From the NCBI GenBank assembly GCA_937892105.1, contig CALAUZ010000067.1:1-22028 (forward strand): a stretch of 22,028 bases of DNA. The letters run 5' to 3'. The notes below the pieces were generated by a model, which was not told where the DNA came from, made no database searches, and was given only the letters and a program-made list of their open reading frames with translations. The DNA is from an uncultured Fretibacterium sp. (GTDB lineage Bacteria > Synergistota > Synergistia > Synergistales > Aminobacteriaceae). This document shows, piece after piece, positions 5,332-20,315 of the stretch. The stretch's first letter is position 1. Each line of letters begins with the position of its first letter. The position numbers and the translations under genes are program-made.

Positions 5332-6181
5332 TTGCGGGTAATTAAACGAGACGGACGGGAAGTCCAATTTGACGCGGTGAAGATTCGCCACGCTATCGAA
5401 GCGGCAAACGCGGCTGTCACAGAAAAAGATAGGCTCAGCAAAAATGAAGTTGAACTTATTATCTCAAGAGTAATAAGAAGCTGTGAAGATTTAGGACGGA
5501 CACTCAGTGTCGAAGAGGTTCAGGACATAATTATTTCTGAACTTGCCAAAGCCGGTCATATAAATCTTATGCTTCATTACAGCGAGTATCGTTACAGGCA
5601 TGAAATGCTACAAAAGCAGAATAGCACCGATGCTAAAATCTTGTCGTTGCTTAGGCATGAGAACGAGTTAGCAAAGCAGGAGAACGCCAACAAAGACCCA
5701 ATCATCAATTCTACGATGCGAGACTACTTGGCTTCGGAAATCAGCGAGGACATTTGCAGACGGTATATCTTCCCAGAAGATGTAATCCGTGCCCATGATG
5801 AGGGAATAATTCACGTTCATGATATGGGGTACGTCAGTGGCCCAATCAGTAACTGTGAGCTTGTGAATCTTAAAGACATGCTTCAGAACGGCACTGTAAT
5901 CACAAACACACTAATCGAGAAACCTCATTCATTTAGAACTGCCTGCAATATTGCAACACAAATCATTGCCCAAGTTGCGAGCAACAGTTTTGGAGGTCAA
6001 ACAATCTCATTAGCTCATCTTGCGCCATTTGTTGACATATCACGTCAGCATTACAGAGATGAAGTTCGCAGTGAGTTTGAAGCAATCGGCAAGACCGCAA
6101 GCGAAGCTGAGATAAACCATATAGCGGAACTGAGGGTTCAGAAGGAAATTAAGGACGGGGTACAGACCATCCAGTATCAAA
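5332..6181 (+). CDS. nrdD: nrdD exon 1: anaerobic ribonucleoside-triphosphate reductase
   Basis: The first of three exons. It starts at TTG 5332, 9 nt after AAAGGAGG (5315-5322), and encodes an ATP-cone (residues 1-95: MRVIKRDGREVQFDAVKI) and the beginning of the class III reductase barrel (IHVHDMGYVSGPISNCELVN, then SNSFGGQTISLAHLAPFVD). The enzyme reduces ribonucleoside triphosphates to deoxy forms under anoxia with a glycyl radical generated by NrdG. The reading frame ends GVQTIQYQ plus one base (A6181), then enters the group II intron. The expected family sequence (QYQINTLMTTNGQ) resumes only at 8918. Joining 5332-6181, 8918-9258 and 9516-10490 gives exactly 722 codons, a normal NrdD length. 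Confidence 0.92.
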
Positions 6182-8917
6182 GCGCGACTTGTTGAGACAT
6201 GAAAAGTGTCTCCTTGACAGCACAAAAATGCAGTCAAGAACTGCATATCCGAGTGAGCGGAATGATGGGGTAACGCCCAGAAACACTCCCTTTAATACTC
6301 CGGCACGCGTCATATAGCGAAAGCTAAGGCGTGTGAAGCCCGGTGAAGTCGGCTGAGAGTGACCGTACAGGAAAAATCCTACGAAAGTTGCCCAGAGGTG
6401 GGTGGTGTCACCTATAGGTCGGAAGTCTATAATGCATACACGGTTAGAATGGTATGAAAAAGCCTGACGAACTGGCGAATGTAAGGGTCTATAATTGGAC
6501 GTGATAGAAATGTCACGGGTTCCACGAAGGGACGTTAGCGTGGTTGAGTAAGAATTTTGGTTATGAAAGACCATTATCCGTTACAGGCGGATACGTGCTA
6601 ACAGGCTCAAAGTCAGAACCTAAATATGCAAGAACAGATAGGATATGCGGAACAAGGAAAGGTATCGGAGTTGTGCAATACGACTAAGACGGCGAAGAAT
6701 AATAAGCGTCTGAACCGATGCTGAAAAGTAGAGGTCGAACCAATGAAACTTCTGTAATGGAAGCGGAGGAATGGCCTCAAGTCGTTCAAAGTAAATTCGA
6801 GGTCACTATACTACATAGGATTTCGAGTATGACCAAAAGCGTCACTCGTCGAAAGGCAGGTGATGCCTATGCCAAAACAAAGCAAGGTAAAATGCGAGGG
6901 ATCCATTCGTTACTCTGAATACTATGGCATGCAGGAAATATTCGACAGACTGTATCAACAGTCCAAAGAAAGTATCCCGCTTGAAAATGCAATGGACTTA
7001 ATTCTATCAAAGGACAACATTGTATTAGCCTACAGAAACATAAAGAGAAACGATGGAAGTAATACCAGGGGTACAGACAGGCTCACAATCAAAGATATCG
7101 AAAATCTTACGGTAGATGAAGTTGTTGAAAATGTTCGTAAATTCCTGGTGGGGTCTAAGCATGGATACCGACCTAAACCGGTACGCAGGAAGGAGATACC
7201 TAAGCCAAACGGCAAAACCAGACCATTGGGAATACCGTGTATCTGGGACAGGTTGATACAGCAATGCATCCTTCAAATCCTGCAACCATATTGTGAGGCA
7301 AAGTTCAGTAGTAACAGCTATGGGTTCCGCCCTACAAGAAGTGCAGAACATGCGATATGTAAAATGTACAATCTCATGAATCTGTCACATCTGCATTACG
7401 TTATAGAACTGGACATAGAAGGTTTCTTCGACCATGTAAATCACAGCAAGCTGATAAAGCAAATGTGGAGCATGGGAATAAGAGACAAGAAGCTCATTTA
7501 CATTATCAAACAAATCCTGAAAGCACCCATTCGGATGCCAGACGGAAAAACCATAATCCCAACAGAGGGCACGCCGCAAGGTGGAATTATTTCCCCATTA
7601 CTGGCAAACATAAACCTCAACGAGTTTGATAAATGGATAGAAAGCCAATGGGCAGACCATCCTATCGCAAATGCACATGTGCACATGAACGGCAATCATC
7701 TCAATAAAGGAAATGGTTACGAGATAATGAAGAAGACCAACCTTAAGGAAATGCGTATCGTCAGGTATGCCGATGACGCAAGAATCCTGTGCAGAACAAG
7801 GAAGGACACCGAAAACACTCTGATAGCAGTTACAGAATGGTTAAGAGAACGGCTGAAATTAAATGTTTCGCCAGAGAAAACCAGAATTGTAAATGTCAAA
7901 GAGCAATGGGCAGAATATCTTGGATTTGAAATCAGGGTCGAACTGAAAGGTGGTAAATGGGTGGTGAAGTCTCGTATGTGTCGTAAGGCATACGAAAGAG
8001 CCTTGTATAACCTCAAAGAACAAGTCAAGTTAATGGCCAAACCAAGGGACAGCAAAAATGTTCACGATGAAGTTGTAAAATATAATCAAATGGTCATGGG
8101 CATTCAGAATTATTATCAGATTGCCACAATGATAAACATCGACTGCATGGCAATGCAAAGAGAAATCATGATATTGATGACCAGTAGATTTAACGGAACA
8201 AAACAGCGTGGAAATATGTTGTCTAGGGTCGGAAAAAGAAAGCTAACGGAATATGAGGCAAAGAGATATGAAAAGTCCAAAATGCTCCGATGGCTTAAGA
8301 ATGAGGATTCTCCCATATATCCAATAGGATATATAAAGCACAAAAACCCAATGGGGTACCCGACAAACAGATGTCCGTATACACCAGAAGGGCGTAAGGG
8401 AATTCATGACAACGTAAAATTCGATAATATGTATTTATTGGCAGAACTCAGAAGCCAATGTGCATATGACAGAACGATAGAATTCATGGATAATCGACAG
8501 TCATTGTTTTCAGTCCAGACGGGAAAATGTGGAGTAACTGGAAGAAGTTTTATTACAATAAACGAAATCCATTGTCACCACATAACCTCACAAGAAAATG
8601 GGGGCAATGATAGGTACGAAAACCTTATACTTGTACTGGACGATATCCACATTCTTATCCATGCCAAATCCGACGATACCATAAAGAGGTATCTAACGAA
8701 AACAAAACTTGACAAAGAAGAGCTGATAAAGCTTAACAAATTAAGGGAAAAGGCACACAGAAGTCCGATTCCCAAAAACGTTTTGGATAGTATAGGATAG
8801 TATAGATAGGTCTTAAATTTACAAGAACGATGGAACGCCGTGTGCGGGGAAACTCGCATGCACGGTGTGGAGTGGGGGAAAAGTTGGAGATAACATCAAA
8901 GATTTACCTATCACTAT
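6182..8917 (+). mobile_element. Group II intron in nrdD, with reverse transcriptase ORF
   Basis: A 2736-nt intron. The 5' end is GCGCGACTTG, close to the GUGYG consensus but with C at the second position. Structured non-coding sequence runs to about 6860, followed by the maturase gene. Domain V lies at about 8832-8869: CCGUG pairs with CACGG, a two-base bulge (UG) follows, and a GAAA tetraloop caps it; the triad reads CGC. Domain VI follows, and the intron ends in AT at 8917. The 3' boundary was set by protein homology: only A6181 plus TC at 8918 restores Q-I-L-T-L-L-T-T-N-G-Q. The boundaries could shift by one or two bases. Orientation is the same as nrdD, as required for splicing. Confidence 0.88.
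6869..8800 (+). CDS. ltrA: Group II intron-encoded protein: reverse transcriptase/maturase with HNH endonuclease
   Basis: About 643 residues. The reverse transcriptase domain contains RPLGIPCIWDRLIQQ, YGFRPTRSAEHA, LDIEGFFDHVNH, TPQGGIISPLLANI and the catalytic YADD at residues 300-303, so polymerase residues look intact. A maturase (X) domain follows (about 370-470). The C-terminal region has an HNH-type zinc endonuclease: CGVTGRSF, then HCHHITSQENGG and ENLILVLDDIHILIHA (about 545-600). It should promote intron splicing and retrohoming by target-primed reverse transcription. ATG 6869 was chosen, 8 nt after AGG (6858-6860), with AAAGG at 6853-6857; GTG 6860 and ATG 6863 are alternatives. It sits in intron domain IV. 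The lack of frame breaks argues for recent activity. Confidence 0.93.
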   Translation: MPKQSKVKCEGSIRYSEYYGMQEIFDRLYQQSKESIPLENAMDLILSKDNIVLAYRNIKRNDGSNTRGTDRLTIKDIENLTVDEVVENVRKFLVGSKHGYRPKPVRRKEIPKPNGKTRPLGIPCIWDRLIQQCILQILQPYCEAKFSSNSYGFRPTRSAEHAICKMYNLMNLSHLHYVIELDIEGFFDHVNHSKLIKQMWSMGIRDKKLIYIIKQILKAPIRMPDGKTIIPTEGTPQGGIISPLLANINLNEFDKWIESQWADHPIANAHVHMNGNHLNKGNGYEIMKKTNLKEMRIVRYADDARILCRTRKDTENTLIAVTEWLRERLKLNVSPEKTRIVNVKEQWAEYLGFEIRVELKGGKWVVKSRMCRKAYERALYNLKEQVKLMAKPRDSKNVHDEVVKYNQMVMGIQNYYQIATMINIDCMAMQREIMILMTSRFNGTKQRGNMLSRVGKRKLTEYEAKRYEKSKMLRWLKNEDSPIYPIGYIKHKNPMGYPTNRCPYTPEGRKGIHDNVKFDNMYLLAELRSQCAYDRTIEFMDNRQSLFSVQTGKCGVTGRSFITINEIHCHHITSQENGGNDRYENLILVLDDIHILIHAKSDDTIKRYLTKTKLDKEELIKLNKLREKAHRSPIPKNVLDSIG

Positions 8918-9258
8918 TCCTGACACTGCTCACGACTAACGGTCAAACCCCCTTTGTTTCTGTGTTCATGTATCTTGATGAAGTTCAGCCTGGTCAGACT
9001 AGAGATGATCTCGGATTAATTATCGCGGAGACATTGAAGCAAAGGTATGAAGGCATCAAGAACGAAGTCGGAGAATGGATTAGTCCGGCATTTCCGAAGC
9101 TTCTGTACGTCCTCGACGAAGACAATATTACGGAAGATAGTCCTTACTGGCATTTAACAGTTTTAGCGGCTAAATGTACAGCTAGGCGAATGGTGCCGGA
9201 TTACATCAGCGCGAAAGTCATGAGAAAACTTAAAGGCGATGTTTATGCCTGCATGGGT
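8918..9258 (+). CDS. nrdD: nrdD exon 2
   Basis: The middle exon encodes ILTLLTTNGQTPFVSVFMYL, then a helical stretch, then ISAKVMRKLKGDVYACMG. It ends at ATG GGT (9253-9258), immediately before the family's conserved Cys-Arg of MGCR. The frame would run on to a TAG at 9271-9273, giving the non-family tail LECS, which is intron sequence. The T at 9258 is the expected U of the P1 U-G pair of the group I intron. Splicing with exon 3 creates the CMGCRAFL motif that by family knowledge contains an active-site cysteine. Confidence 0.92.
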
Positions 9259-9515
9259 TTAGAATGCTCTTAGCCCATGTAAAACCTCTTGAACCGTGCT
9301 TAACGGGTGTGGCTTAAATAAGCTGCTAACGGTTAGGACTCTTTTAAGAGTTGAGACCGTGCTAAAATTCAAAATTATGAATAAAGTGTATCGACTATCC
9401 CTGATGAGTGTAAGGGAGTAGGGCTGGAAATAAGCACCAGCTCCAAGCGAGAGGCTATGTGTATAACGCGCATAGAATATATAGTCAGTACTTGCGGTGA
9501 CGCAAGATTTTCACG
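9259..9515 (+). ncRNA. Group I self-splicing intron (td-like, IA) in nrdD
   Basis: A compact 257-nt intron without an ORF. P1: exon CATGGGT (9252-9258) pairs with the internal guide GCCCATG (9273-9279), with the U-G wobble exactly at the 5' splice site. P7: GACTA (9393-9397) pairs with TAGTC (9482-9486). The segment GACTATCCCT...AGGGAGTAGGG (9393-9422) and the ATATAGTC plus a CTTGCG-GTGA-CGCAAG hairpin (9491-9506) match the layout of the phage T4 td intron core as I remember it. The last base is G9515. Removing it restores CMG-CRAFLTPD without loss or gain of a residue. It probably depends on no protein, or on one made elsewhere, since no homing endonuclease is inside. Confidence 0.9.
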
Positions 9516-10490
9516 TGTAGAGCGTTTTTAACTCCGGATACAGTCGGTCTTAATCCTGATAGAAGCCATAAGTATTACGGCCGCCTAAATCAGGGAGCTG
9601 TAACAATTAACCTTGTTGATGTGGCATGTTCAGCGGACGGCAATGAGGAACGCTTCTTGGAACTCATGGAAGAACGTACCGAACTGTGTCACAAAGCACT
9701 GAGAATCAGGCATGAAACTTTACTTGGAACACCGAGTGATGTAGCTCCTATTCTCTGGCAGTACGGAGCAATTTCAAGACTAGCTAAGGGCGAAAAGATT
9801 GATAAGCTGCTGTATAACAATTACAGTACCATCAGCCTCGGTTACGCTGGTCTTTATGAATGCGTTTACCGCATGAAGGGAGTTTCTCATACAGAGCCAG
9901 TCGGACACGATTTCGCCATTGAAGTCATGAAGTTTCTGAATAAGAAAACGGCGCAATGGAGGGAAGCTGAGAATATCTCCTACTCTTTGTATGGAACGCC
10001 TATGGAATCCTCTACTTACAAATTTGCGAAGTGCTTACAGCGCAGATTTGGAAAGATTCCAGAAGTAACGGATCACAATTACATCACGAATTCTTATCAT
10101 GTAGTTGTCCGTGAGGAAATTGATGCATTCTCCAAACTGGCGTTTGAATCTGAATTGCAAGAGCTGAGTACAGGCGGGGCAATAAGCTATGTAGAAGTTC
10201 CCAATATGCAGAACAATATTCCTGCCGTGTTATCCGTCATGAAATTCATTTACGATAACATCATGTACGCGGAGTTAAACACAAAGTCTGATTACTGCCA
10301 AGTTTGCGGTTTTGACGGCGAGATAAAAATCGTCGAAGATGACGGCAAGCTTATTTGGGAATGTCCTAAGTGCGGTAATCGAGATGAACGCAAGATGAAC
10401 GTCTGTCGCCGAGTTTGCGGTTACTTGGGTGTGAATTACTTTAATCAGGGCAGAACGGCAGAGCTTCGAGAAAGAGTCTTGCATTTATAA
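9516..10490 (+). CDS. nrdD: nrdD exon 3, catalytic C-terminal part
   Basis: The exon starts TGT AGA GCG (C-R-A-F-L-T-P-D), continues HKYYGRLNQGAVTINLVDVA, and carries the conserved LLGTPSDVAPILWQYGA, SLGYAGLYECVY and FAKCLQRRFG segments. Near the end is the structural zinc site CQVCG...CPKCG and the glycyl radical motif R-V-C-G-Y, with the radical Gly near residue 699 of the 721-residue spliced protein, about 22 from the C-terminus, as in the family. An apparent separate start (CTG/ATG-like frame at 9621) is an artefact of the intron. nrdG follows 61 nt downstream. Confidence 0.93.
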   Translation, partial: CRAFLTPDTVGLNPDRSHKYYGRLNQGAVTINLVDVACSADGNEERFLELMEERTELCHKALRIRHETLLGTPSDVAPILWQYGAISRLAKGEKIDKLLYNNYSTISLGYAGLYECVYRMKGVSHTEPVGHDFAIEVMKFLNKKTAQWREAENISYSLYGTPMESSTYKFAKCLQRRFGKIPEVTDHNYITNSYHVVVREEIDAFSKLAFESELQELSTGGAISYVEVPNMQNNIPAVLSVMKFIYDNIMYAELNTKSDYCQVCGFDGEIKIVEDDGKLIWECPKCGNRDERKMNVCRRVCGYLGVNYFNQGRTAELRERVLHL

Positions 10491-10551: not shown

Positions 10552-11043
10552 ATGAATTACGGAGCAATCAAGAAGAATGATATTGCCAATGGTCTTGGTG
10601 TGAGAGTTTCCTTGTTTGTCTCCGGCTGTAGAAATCACTGTGATGGTTGCTTTCAACCGCAAACTTGGGATTTTGAATATGGTCAGCCGTTCACGAAAGA
10701 AGTAGAAGATGAAATTTTAGGGGCTCTGCGTCCTGATTGGATACAGGGTCTTTCCATTCTCGGCGGCGAACCGATGGAAGCAGAGAATCAGGAAGCTCTT
10801 TTGCCTTTCTTGAAACGAGTCAAAGAAGAATACTCGAATAAAGATGTGTGGCTTTATAGCGGCTATGTGTATGAGCAGATTAAAGATGCTGCACTGCTTC
10901 AATATGTGGATGTCCTTGTAGACGGGCCTTTTATGGAAAAGCTAAAGGATCCGTCACTGGCATTTAGAGGTAGCAGTAATCAAAGAAGCTTGAATGTGCA
11001 AGAGAGTCTGCGTGCTGGTCAGGCTGTTCTTGAGGAGAGCTAG
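10552..11043 (+). CDS. nrdG: Anaerobic ribonucleotide reductase activating protein (radical SAM)
   Basis: A 163-residue protein with the radical SAM [4Fe-4S] motif C26-RNH-C30-DG-C33 and the SAM-contacting GGEPM near residue 70. The length and the N-terminus (NYGAIKKNDIANGLGVRVSL) are typical of NrdG. It cleaves S-adenosylmethionine to make the 5'-deoxyadenosyl radical that abstracts hydrogen from the NrdD glycine. It lies directly downstream of nrdD, as in most phage and bacterial pairs. ATAAAGGATACC precedes ATG 10552. No defect seen. Confidence 0.95.
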   Translation: MNYGAIKKNDIANGLGVRVSLFVSGCRNHCDGCFQPQTWDFEYGQPFTKEVEDEILGALRPDWIQGLSILGGEPMEAENQEALLPFLKRVKEEYSNKDVWLYSGYVYEQIKDAALLQYVDVLVDGPFMEKLKDPSLAFRGSSNQRSLNVQESLRAGQAVLEES

Positions 11044-15497: not shown

Positions 15498-17385
15498 ACC
15501 AATCGGCGAGAAAGACGTAAAATGTGAACTTTATCACGATAACTTTCAGAATTTCAAATCATACAATATTCCAAAAGCTCAATTGGTAATAGCGGATATT
15601 CCTTATTGCTATGATGAACAAACTGAGTGCTGGACAGCAGAAGGTTGGAAAAAATACACTGAACTTACTCTCAACGATACAGTAATGAGTTTAAATTCTG
15701 TTACACAGGAGATTGAATATTCTGGTATAGAGCGAATTATCATACGTGACAATGATGAAAGGATGATAAGCTTTAATAATAATAATCTCAACTTGCTTGT
15801 CACTGAAAACCATCGAATGTTTGTAAAATCCGATAGGAAAAGACAAGGCATAGGAATAAGAAATGTCAGATGGTCAAGCGAAGATGGGATTCGATTGGCT
15901 AAAAAAACTGGTGCAATGTGGTTTATTCCTAGAAGCGGATACTCTTATACAAGCCATTCAAAAGTTAATGAAATAGTTATTCCTGCGTGCGATATACTGA
16001 CCAAGGGGAGAGAGCATGTCAAAGCAGAAACAATTATTCCTCTTGATGTATGGCTTCCTTTTTTCGGCCTTTGGTTAGCTAATGGCTTTGTTTGTAATTC
16101 AAAAGCGAGCAATGGACGACAACTCTATACTGTCAGTATTAAACAGGCCGGTGAAAGAAGAAAAGCTGTAATGGAGATGTTGGAAAGGCTGCCGTACAAA
16201 GCAATTGAATATTCCAACAAAGGCACTGACAAGAGTAATATCAACATATATTCAAAGCAATTGTGGCTGTATATGAAGCAATTTGGTAAGTCGGACGAGA
16301 AGTTTATTCCTCGTTGGATACTGGATTTATCAACAGAATACCTCCAATTACTTTGGAAGTGGTATACATTTGGAAACTCTCATATCAGTGGCACCGGGAT
16401 AAAAATTTCAAGTATTTCAGAGCGATTAATAAATGAGCTACAAGAAATCGCGTTAAAACTTGGAACTTTGTGTCAAATTAGAACTTTTAGTTATGGAAAT
16501 TCTACACTTTACTATTTTCAGTATAATCCTGAAAGCAGGAATATAAGGTATAGCGGTAAAAGATATGTCGATGATTATTCCGGCAAAGTTTGGTGTATCA
16601 CTTTAACCAATAATTCCGTATTCTTAGTTAGACGAAACGGGCTTATTGCTTTTTCTGGCAACTGTCTTGGAAATAGTTTTCATGCATCTCGTCCAGAGTG
16701 GTGGAAGGACGGGAAAATTGAAAACGGGACAAGTTCAAACGCTAACAAGGCTGCGTTTAATACAGATTACACTTTTAATCTTGCTGAGTACTTCCATTTC
16801 TGTTCTAAGATGCTCAGAAAAGAACCAGCAAAAGGAGAAAAAGATGCTCCAGCTATGGTTGTTTTTTGTTCGTTTGAACAGATGCAGGAAGTTATAAGGC
16901 AGGGTGAGAAGTATGGTTTTAAGCACTATATCCCATTGGTGCTAATAAAGCCTACAAGTCCTTCTGTACTGAAAGCAAATATGAAAATTGTTGGTGCTAC
17001 AGAATATGCTTTAGTCTTGTACCGTGACAAGTTGCCTAAGTTTCGTAATGAAGATGAAAACGGGGTCAAACACATGGTGAAGAATTGGTTTGAATTTAAA
17101 AAAGATTCACCAAAAGATATTTCACGTATTCACCCTACTCAGAAGCCATCAAACGTAATCAAAAAGCTGATTGAGATATTCACAGATCCCGGAGATGTTG
17201 TTATAGACCCAGTGGCCGGAAGTGCAATAACTCTAAAAGTTGCACGTGATCTTGGGCGTAATTCATACGGCTTTGAAATCAGCGCAGATTTTTACAAGAA
17301 AGCTAAAGAGCAGATGTTGCAACAAACATCACAGTCATCGCAATCAGTGCAATCAAACGGGGAGGAAAACGTTGTTGAAAGTTGA
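15481..17385 (+). CDS. DNA methyltransferase with intein in the catalytic DIPY motif
   Basis: Extein parts encode a beta-class methyltransferase of about 282 residues: VIADIPY, then after the intein CLGNSFHASRPEWW, AFNTDYTFNLAEYFHFCSKM, APAMVVFCSFEQM, LKANMKIVGATEYALVLYRD, HPTQKPSNVIKKLIEIF and DPVAGSAITL. The family usually has DIPYNLGN, so Asn is replaced here by the Cys required at intein +1. Motif I reads AGSA instead of AGSG, which could affect SAM binding. Start GTG 15481 (AAGGG 4 nt upstream) was preferred over TTG 15490. The longer frame from 15379 lies inside the preceding gene. The 3' end overlaps thyX. Confidence 0.87.
   Translation: MRLLNEPIGEKDVKCELYHDNFQNFKSYNIPKAQLVIADIPYCYDEQTECWTAEGWKKYTELTLNDTVMSLNSVTQEIEYSGIERIIIRDNDERMISFNNNNLNLLVTENHRMFVKSDRKRQGIGIRNVRWSSEDGIRLAKKTGAMWFIPRSGYSYTSHSKVNEIVIPACDILTKGREHVKAETIIPLDVWLPFFGLWLANGFVCNSKASNGRQLYTVSIKQAGERRKAVMEMLERLPYKAIEYSNKGTDKSNINIYSKQLWLYMKQFGKSDEKFIPRWILDLSTEYLQLLWKWYTFGNSHISGTGIKISSISERLINELQEIALKLGTLCQIRTFSYGNSTLYYFQYNPESRNIRYSGKRYVDDYSGKVWCITLTNNSVFLVRRNGLIAFSGNCLGNSFHASRPEWWKDGKIENGTSSNANKAAFNTDYTFNLAEYFHFCSKMLRKEPAKGEKDAPAMVVFCSFEQMQEVIRQGEKYGFKHYIPLVLIKPTSPSVLKANMKIVGATEYALVLYRDKLPKFRNEDENGVKHMVKNWFEFKKDSPKDISRIHPTQKPSNVIKKLIEIFTDPGDVVIDPVAGSAITLKVARDLGRNSYGFEISADFYKKAKEQMLQQTSQSSQSVQSNGEENVVES
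15607..16662 (+). mobile_element. Intein 1 (352 residues) with degenerate endonuclease motifs
   Basis: It begins at Cys1 (CYDEQTECWTAEGWKKYTEL, block A), has a block B histidine in LLVTENHRMFV, and ends VFLVRRNGLIAFSGN before Cys+1. The C-terminal Asn is present but the penultimate residue is Gly instead of His. Candidate LAGLIDADG helices read FGLWLANGF and LLWKWYTFGN, both lacking the usual acidic residue, so the homing endonuclease is probably dead while splicing may persist. Its removal restores the DIPY-CLGNSF methyltransferase core. Confidence 0.9.
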
Positions 17386-19343: not shown

Positions 19344-20315
19344 TGCTTTTCTGGTGATACGTTAATCACTACATCACAGGGATTAAAACCGATAAAAGAT
19401 ATTAAAGTTGGCGAACTTGTACGAACTAACGATGGAACGTATCAACCAGTCTTGGCTACATACTTACACAAATCAAAGGAAGTTTTAAGGGTTAAATATC
19501 AGGGTGGCGAATTAGTTTGTACTCCTAATCACCCTTTTTTAACAGAAGCTGGAGAATATGTTCCTATTGGATGCATGCAATCAGGTAGCACCATAGGATT
19601 TAGATGTGAACAAGGGAATAATCATATCGGAATGCCTGTGGCTTACGCCTTTGGACGTTGGCTTGCTGATGGTTCTGTTGTATTGAGACCAGACAGAAAA
19701 ACACATCATAGAATTTTCATATCATGCGGATACTCAAAATACGAAGCGTTGAAGCAAGAGCTGTCTAAACTCCCTTACCGAATATCTGAGAATAAAATGG
19801 AATGGGCTGTGAATTTCACTTTTTCATCTGACGAATTCGGGGCTTTAACTGATACAGCGGGCTATGTCGCAAGAAATAAGCAAGTACCAGAATGGGTTTT
19901 TCAACTGTGTGCAGAAGAACGAGCGGAAGTTTTAAGGGGATATTTAGACGGTGACGGATATTCACGAACAAGGAAGAAGCATATAGAGTGCTGTTTTTCT
20001 TCTTCATCTAAAAAACTGATATATGGCATAGCACGTTTGATTCGTGACGTATATCATGTTGGTTGCTCAATTTTTTTTAATAAAGGAAAGGGCAAGACTG
20101 CTATACAAGGACGTACTGTTAATGCTAACGATTATTGGTCTGCGTCTTTTTCTCCAGAAACAGGCTTTAATCGCCCTTTTCGACTTTCAAAGTATAAAGA
20201 TGGTTTCATATGGACATCAATAAAGTCCATAGATGATTGGGACAAAACGGATGTCTATAATTTATCAGTAGGAGGGAATCATACATATGAGGCAAATGGC
20301 ATCTGCGTCCACAAC
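19344..20315 (+). mobile_element. Intein 2 (324 residues) with LAGLIDADG homing endonuclease
   Basis: Block A CFSGDTLITTSQGLKPIKDI, block B GGELVCTPNHPFL, endonuclease motifs FGRWLADGS and LRGYLDGDGYS with the acidic residues intact, and block F VYNLSVGGNHTYEANGICVH then Asn, followed by Cys+1. All canonical splicing residues are present (Cys1, TxxH, His-Asn, Cys+1). Insertion is within the ENV|CGAF motif VI of the methyltransferase, a catalytic segment. The endonuclease looks functional, although its host gene is broken. Confidence 0.93.

What the first reader, a model, noticed from the sequence alone, without database searches (positions are those of the whole stretch)
5332..10490. One nrdD gene split by both a group II and a group I intron
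Three exons (850, 341 and 975 nt) join to exactly 722 codons with normal NrdD motifs throughout. The group II junction restores Q-I-L-T-L-L-T-T-N-G-Q, and the group I junction restores CMG-CRAFL. T4 nrdD also has a group I intron, but I know of few, if any, cases of both intron classes in one phage gene. The two ribozymes must splice from the same mRNA under anoxic nucleotide demand, which invites splicing-based regulation of dNTP synthesis.
Basis: partly seen in the sequence, partly recalled or inferred. Interest (0 to 1): 0.88.

Follow-up and report, generated by a model that had tools for sequence, protein, structure and literature searches.

The report
Phage nrdD split by two introns
A gut-type phage gene for making DNA building blocks without oxygen is interrupted by two self-splicing RNA elements of different classes, one of which looks like a mobile element aimed specifically at this gene.

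Summary
nrdD is split at 6181/6182–8917/8918 and 9258/9259–9515/9516 into exons of 850, 341 and 975 nt (721 residues plus stop). The first insert is a complete group II intron: both Rfam parts pass, and it encodes an RT/maturase with YADD intact. The second is a 257-nt group I intron. Rfam scores it below threshold, but a covariance model built from six relatives without the window finds it at 121.7 bits; P1 fits the junction.

The group II guide pairs at 11 or more of 12 positions with the cognate, empty site in 186 of 209 other nrdD loci. Two proteins from other contigs read as the same kind of intron end fused to NrdD at the same residue, and one has a counterpart identical over 117 residues without it. 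So it looks like a nrdD-homing retroelement. The group I point (Met-Gly|Cys290) also holds other group I-like introns and inteins.

Regulation of dNTP synthesis by splicing has no support. Both classes in one phage gene is already published (virion RNA polymerase beta', 2025); I found no group II intron in nrdD in nine open-access literature searches.

The parts
5332..6181 (+). nrdD exon 1 (850 nt, TTG start): ATP-cone and N-terminal NRDD
   Evidence: Pfam PF03477 and PF13597 positions 1-145; relatives align to its last codon
6170..6181 (+). IBS2 (6170-6175) and IBS1 (6176-6181), exon bases read by the group II guide
   Evidence: 12 of 12 positions pair with EBS2/EBS1, G.U counted
6182..8917 (+). 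group II intron, 2736 nt, 5' GCGCG, 3' ...CACTAT
   Evidence: RF02004 and RF00029 above gathering score; boundaries from exon homologues; EBS/IBS
6236..6433 (+). group II domain 1 part (Rfam D1-D4-5)
   Evidence: 169.8 bits
6494..6499 (+). EBS2 (less firm than EBS1)
   Evidence: for exon -12..-7 the best column, 76% of pairs over 11 introns; 6 of 6 in the window only. Five exon frames were tried; this place was best in four
6556..6561 (+). EBS1
   Evidence: 97% of pairs over 11 introns, 9 of 11 complete; next best column 64%, column mean 29% sd 14%
6869..8800 (+). intron-encoded protein, 643 aa: reverse transcriptase (YADD at 300), maturase, C-terminal part HNH-like by inspection
   Evidence: TIGR04416 348 bits, cut-off 300; PF00078. 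Pfam found no HNH in the window's protein; relatives P0002 and P0003 carry PF01844. Frame intact
8833..8917 (+). group II domains 5 and 6, with a bulged A by inspection near the 3' end
   Evidence: RF00029 62.4 bits
8918..9258 (+). nrdD exon 2 (341 nt)
   Evidence: PF13597 positions 148-263
9259..9515 (+). group I intron, 257 nt, no ORF of note; U before, G at its end
   Evidence: model R1 121.7 bits; P1 of 9 pairs starting with U.G (2 of 500 shuffles as long) and a P10 candidate of 7 pairs (no shuffle control); RF00028 18.3 bits, below cut-off
9516..10490 (+). nrdD exon 3 (975 nt), begins with the codon of the Cys equivalent to T4 NrdD Cys290; glycyl radical domain
   Evidence: PF13597 264-562, PF01228; T4 numbering
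10552..11043 (+). nrdG, the NrdD activase
   Evidence: TIGR02491 179.4 bits, cut-off 126.1

Best explanation
This is most likely a working phage nrdD gene carrying two self-splicing introns that arrived separately. The group II intron is a mobile retroelement. Its RNA excises with help from its RT/maturase; the RNA-protein complex then reads a 12-base stretch encoding the conserved Ile-Gln-Tyr-Gln motif, and the RT copies the intron into empty nrdD alleles (retrohoming). The guide has U opposite a Gln wobble base and G opposite the Tyr wobble base, so it tolerates synonymous changes. The group I intron sits directly before the codon of the catalytic Cys, carries no endonuclease gene, and persists by splicing cleanly. 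Shown: anatomy, junctions, guide pairing, same-site readings and an empty counterpart elsewhere. Inferred: splicing, retrohoming, separate arrival, function of the joined NrdD.
For: Exon continuity. Both group II parts above threshold. EBS1/IBS1 pairing stands out across 11 introns. The guide pairs at 11 or more of 12 positions in 186 of 209 nrdD loci, all empty at that point, against 0.12% of random positions in the same loci. P0131 and P0134 read as D5/D6 fused to NrdD at the same residue. P0242 is identical to P0131 over 117 residues but has the ordinary upstream sequence. Group I: R1, P1. NrdD domains and NrdG intact.
Against: No RNA data. The intron starts GC, not the usual GU; by inspection relative L170 also appears to start GC. 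Rfam's group I model scores below its cut-off. None of 209 related DNA loci has the group II intron, so it is rare. The DNA behind P0131, P0134 and P0242 was not seen. EBS2 is less clear than EBS1: only the window reaches 6 of 6. The wobble argument is post hoc and rests on four positions.
Confidence: 0.87

Rival explanations
1. The two introns have been recruited to tune NrdD output: splicing depends on GTP, magnesium or the maturase and so couples NrdD synthesis to nucleotide state under anoxia.
For: Unspliced RNA would stop after a few codons at both 5' splice sites, so NrdD does depend on splicing.
Against: The same is true of any intron in a coding frame. Of 209 related nrdD loci all lack the group II intron, and at the group I point only 12 of 206 judged loci have any insert, so control by them is dispensable. 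No regulatory feature was seen, though none was searched for systematically.
Confidence: 0.04
2. The gene is broken: the inserts are dead and NrdD is not made, or the contig is a chimaeric assembly.
For: No RNA evidence; GC at the group II 5' end; only one DNA copy seen.
Against: Exact codon continuity at two junctions, intact RT frame with YADD, guide matching its own exon, P1 matching its exon, intact nrdG, and the same group II junction read from two other contigs.
Confidence: 0.06
3. The group II element came in by one-off retrotransposition, and the guide match to other nrdD genes only reflects conservation of the codons at that spot.
For: Any intron in a conserved motif would match many homologues; 0 of 209 loci hold it.
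Against: Same site in three sequences whose aligned pieces (D5/D6 reading plus exon 2) are 64-68% identical to the window's, a counterpart of P0131 without it, and a guide that fits more alleles than a strict complement would (12/12 in 115 against 55 of 209).
Confidence: 0.15

Closest known systems
Virion RNA polymerase beta' gene of phages such as AR9 and PBS1 (Merk et al. 2025, PMC12350094; section 6 read)
   Same: one phage gene with both a group I and a group II intron
   Different: there the introns carry related homing endonucleases; here the group II intron carries an RT/maturase protein, the group I intron has no ORF, and the gene is nrdD
T4 nrdD (sunY) group I intron with I-TevII (sequence L083; PMC2988022 passages read)
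   Same: intron in nrdD; T4's insertion point is 6 nt upstream of the window's group II point
   Different: T4 has a group I intron there; no second insert was seen in the T4 stretch read
Split nrdD of Jug phages (PMC12363816; passages read)
   Same: gut phage nrdD cut by group I introns and intein-like inserts; splicing seen in metatranscriptomes
   Different: no group II intron in the passages read
Termite-gut phage contigs LSPY01000009 and LSPZ01000022 (PMC5759034; passages read)
   Same: nrdD and a group II intron reverse transcriptase in one phage genome
   Different: the passage does not say that the intron lies in nrdD; their DNA was not looked at here
Bacillus phage SPbeta nrdE (described in PMC3653736; passages read)
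   Same: RNR gene with more than one class of self-splicing element (group I intron plus intein)
   Different: class I enzyme; no group II intron mentioned
Enterococcus ltrA group II introns (top-ranked plasmid matches H43-H50)
   Same: H43-H47: 66% identity over 62% of the intron
   Different: carried on plasmids; insertion sites were not examined

Membership tests
group II intron | catalytic D5/D6 and domain 1 with conserved structure | tested here: met
   RF00029 62.4 and RF02004 169.8 bits, both above cut-off
group II intron | EBS1-IBS1 and EBS2-IBS2 pairing at the 5' splice site | tested here: met
   6 of 6 and 6 of 6 in the window; EBS1 column stands out over 11 introns, EBS2 less so
group II intron | 5' end GUGYG | tested here: not met
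   GCGCG; second base C instead of U. By inspection relative L170 appears also to start GC. A consensus position, not an invariant one as far as I recall; the other features are met, so the filing stands
group II intron | encoded RT/maturase | tested here: met
   TIGR04416 above cut-off, YADD
group II intron | self-splicing through a lariat | not testable with these tools
   needs RNA
group I intron | conserved core found by a covariance model | tested here: met
   R1 without the window: 121.7 bits. RF00028 reaches only 18.3 of 50 bits
group I intron | P1 with U.G at the 5' splice site, and P10 | tested here: met
   9 pairs, 2 of 500 shuffles as long; P10 candidate 7 pairs, best of 16 offsets, no control. 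P1 is weak in relative L056 (5 pairs, 184 of 500)
group I intron | terminal G | tested here: met
   intron ends CACG
group I intron | GTP-initiated splicing | not testable with these tools
   needs RNA
NrdD, class III ribonucleotide reductase | ATP cone, NRDD and glycyl radical domains, catalytic Cys, neighbouring NrdG | tested here: met
   Pfam by exon, NrdG, Cys290 equivalence; residue roles recalled
phage gene | viral genome context | tested here: met
   shared gene neighbourhood in IMG/VR contigs such as L238 and L005; anti-repressor. No structural gene was identified in the window

The most novel reading that the evidence does not exclude
A nrdD-specific lineage of group II retroelements has a guide tuned to read the protein motif rather than one DNA sequence: wobble-tolerant bases face the synonymous positions of the Ile-Gln-Tyr-Gln codons, so one intron can home into most phage and bacterial nrdD alleles. 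It shares the gene with group I introns and inteins that crowd the codon of the catalytic cysteine.
Probability: 0.35. Interest if true: 0.65.

Novelty: new member of a known kind. Interest (0 to 1): 0.5.

Why it matters
It adds nrdD to the phage genes where two unrelated ribozymes must both act on one message. It also gives a concrete group II target site: same-site readings in other contigs, a counterpart without the intron, and a guide whose fit to 209 natural target sites can be counted, so target choice by a group II intron in phages can be tested. The Met-Gly|Cys290 point is a natural case of RNA introns and protein inteins using one and the same nucleotide position.

Tried and rejected
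Rfam at gathering score in relatives: of 11 loci and 14 none was listed with a group I or group II intron, so a dedicated group I model was built (R1). L333, searched alone, does pass RF00028 (50.3 of 50 bits). A second model including the window (R2) was made and not used.

Search for the same group II junction in IMG/VR by DNA pattern: 0 hits twice. IEP search in IMG/VR with one sequence confirmed nothing; with an alignment it gave 63 loci. Of these only L208 has an nrdD match, on the other strand about 4.5 kb away, so none is an intron in nrdD. In genomes 9 of 295 in one order carry a relative at E 1e-150 or better, best 53% identity; their insertion sites were not examined.

L346's 342-nt insert was not recognised by Rfam. 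It resembles L333's at its 3' end, but I do not call it group I.

H31 covers 96% of P0134. I suspect the match only runs on into exon 1; the region was fetched and not analysed further. P0126, P0256, P0262 and P0294 have odd sequence before the motif and were not followed.

Regulation by splicing was considered and set aside for lack of any supporting feature.

Literature: nine counted searches in the open-access library only. In the listings and passages I read, no paper reports a group II intron in nrdD; PMC5759034 reports nrdD and a group II RT in the same termite phage genomes, which I could not resolve. Supplementary tables, including the 9,229 IMG/VR contigs of Merk et al., were not readable, so this intron may sit unnamed in such a table.

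Confidence went from 0.88 to 0.87 because EBS2 and P10 are less well controlled than I had first written.

Full report
WHAT IS THERE. The nrdD frame starts at TTG 5332, stops at 10490, and is interrupted twice. Exons of 850, 341 and 975 nt add to 722 codons including the stop. Searched as three separate pieces, they match Pfam NRDD at positions 1-145, 148-263 and 264-562, with ATP-cone in the first and the glycyl radical domain in the third. tblastn of the three pieces against 82 related loci gave zero extra bases at the first junction in all 79 loci that could be judged, and at the second in 70 of 80, the other ten having inserts at or near it. NrdG follows at 10552-11043.

GROUP II INTRON, 6182-8917. 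Rfam finds domain 1 (RF02004, 169.8 bits) and D5/D6 (RF00029, 62.4 bits), both above the curated cut-off. The 643-residue protein in it is a group II RT/maturase (TIGR04416, 348 bits against a cut-off of 300) with YADD intact. Its end looks HNH-like; Pfam does not detect this in the window's protein, but PF01844 is listed for relatives P0002 and P0003. I aligned the first 480 nt of 11 introns (window plus ten relatives of the 12 loci; L167 was left out as a near copy of L166, and L172 has no domain 1 match). Their 5' ends were set by the motif GYGYG, chosen by inspection where more than one fitted. I then asked which column pairs with the last six exon bases: one column pairs at 97% (9 of 11 introns 6/6), the next best at 64%, the mean over columns being 29% (sd 14%). 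That column is EBS1 (6556-6561 in the window). For EBS2 five exon frames were tried; one place (6494-6499) was best in four of them, at 76% for exon positions -12 to -7, but only the window reaches 6/6 there. The 5' end is GCGCG rather than GUGYG; by inspection relative L170 appears also to begin GC.

GROUP I INTRON, 9259-9515. Rfam's RF00028 gives only 18.3 bits against a cut-off of 50. Relatives with such an insert at the same point or elsewhere in nrdD (L056, L005, L011, L069, L073, L240) were aligned without the window (A4) and made into model R1. R1 finds the window's intron at 121.7 bits (E 1.2e-35, rough); the next match in the 22-kb window is 7.2 bits. In the alignment that includes the window, 18 of 30 predicted pairs show changes on both sides in at least one of seven sequences. 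P1 has nine pairs beginning with the U.G at the splice site (2 of 500 shuffles as long). A P10 of seven pairs with exon 3 was the best of 16 offsets, without a control. The intron ends in G. In relative L056 P1 is weak (5 pairs, 184 of 500 shuffles as long). No ORF of 80 aa or more lies wholly inside the insert.

HOW COMMON. Of the 350 loci held at that time, 274 have a plus-strand nrdD match and 213 are distinct DNA; near copies still count apart. The group II point could be judged in 209 and is empty in all: 202 read straight through, and seven (L341, L347, L334, L318, L350, L348, L345), which a coarse filter had flagged, read on to TTNG and have their insert 26 nt downstream. Those inserts are group I by R1: six at 85-99 bits, L334's at 35 bits. 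The Met-Gly|Cys point could be judged in 206, and fourteen were flagged. By inspection twelve lie exactly there: eight intron-like (L005, L009, L011, L056, L073, L330, L331, L341; L005/L009 and L330/L331 are near copies, and R1 is weak, 20-26 bits, for L330, L331 and L341) and four inteins (L057, L068, L257, L347). L345 and L350 also have intein-like frames starting there. L333 and L346 lie 4 nt upstream; L333's passes RF00028 at 50.3 bits when searched alone, L346's is not recognised. The Cys is T4 NrdD Cys290 by count; its catalytic role is recalled. T4's own nrdD intron lies within codon 180, 6 nt upstream of the group II point here.

SAME GROUP II INTRON ELSEWHERE. A protein search with the ORF that runs from D5/D6 into exon 2 (766 hits, 120 listed), then one with an alignment of three such proteins (4102 hits, 120 listed), together listed 192 proteins (P0121-P0312). 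By motif, 155 have the ordinary sequence before TTNG, three have the D5/D6 reading (the window's own P0121, P0131, P0134), four have something else and 30 lack the motif. In P0131 and P0134 the fusion is at the same residue. P0242 equals P0131 over all 117 compared residues but has the ordinary upstream sequence: a with/without pair. All three (P0131, P0134, P0242) end soon after Tyr-Pro-Cys-Ile, which fits a second break at Cys-AT|G, 4 nt upstream of the window's group I point; L346's DNA shows that reading. L333 shows the point can hold a group I intron; whether P0131 and P0134 have one is not known, since their DNA was not seen.

TARGETING. The window's 12-base guide was scored, G.U allowed, at the cognate position of the same 209 empty loci: 12/12 pairs in 115, 11 or more in 186 (75 of 79 genome loci, 111 of 130 others). 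At random positions in the same loci 11 or more occurs at 0.12%. A strict Watson-Crick complement of the window's exon would reach 12/12 in 55. The gain comes from U facing a Gln wobble base (-8) and G facing the Tyr wobble base (-5). There are four positions where the window's exon base would allow either a Watson-Crick or a wobble partner; the guide wobbles at the two that are third codon positions and not at the other two, one of 16 possible patterns. This was noticed after the fact and is only suggestive.

MECHANISM. I read the two inserts as independent selfish elements. Splicing must restore the frame, because both unspliced frames stop within a few codons. The group II element should move by retrohoming. 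The group I intron has no endonuclease gene of its own; relatives at the same point carry GIY-YIG-like ORFs by inspection (L005, L011), so loss of one is plausible. Nothing I saw supports a regulatory role.

WHAT IS KNOWN. [quoted passage not shown] nrdD split by group I introns and intein-like inserts with splicing seen in RNA: Jug phages (PMC12363816, passages). nrdD and a group II RT in the same termite phage genomes, relation not stated: PMC5759034 (passages). Phage RNR genes as frequent hosts of introns and inteins: PMC3653736 (passages). Mitochondrial cox1 holds both intron classes: PMC2814812 (passages). My searches found no paper on a group II intron in nrdD, within an open-access library and without supplements.

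VERDICT. The combination is rare but not without precedent. The added finding is a group II intron that looks dedicated to nrdD. Regulation is unsupported.

Noticed in passing
window 19344-20315: Intein (324 aa) in a C5-cytosine methyltransferase gene; relatives (e.g. L238, L005) have the empty site.
   Followed up: yes
window 15607-16662: Intein (352 aa, LAGLIDADG-like) in an N6/N4 methyltransferase gene at the PPY-like motif; empty site in L239 and L242-L244. The window thus holds four self-splicing elements of three kinds in 22 kb.
   Followed up: yes
L341 3238-9641: An nrdD with six insertions; several score with the group I model R1.
   Followed up: partly
L257 6158-7000: An intein at the Met-Gly|Cys290 point that starts with Ala and seems by inspection to contain a GIY-YIG endonuclease, which I recall as unusual for inteins.
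   Followed up: no
L056 and L057: NrdD genes equally distant from the window's (both 41/59/63% identity to exons 1-3): one has a group I intron, the other an intein, at the same nucleotide.
   Followed up: partly
L024 5956-6335; L054 5494-6311: Inteins by inspection in nrdD near the Asn-Cys motif (T4 Cys79 region), perhaps a second insertion hotspot beside a catalytic Cys.
   Followed up: no
L346 5333-5676: 342-nt insert without a long ORF by inspection at Cys-AT|G in nrdD, not recognised by Rfam; its first codons read like the ends of P0134, P0258 and P0263.
   Followed up: partly
L208: An IMG/VR contig with a distant relative of the intron-encoded RT and an nrdD match about 4.5 kb away on the other strand.
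   Followed up: no
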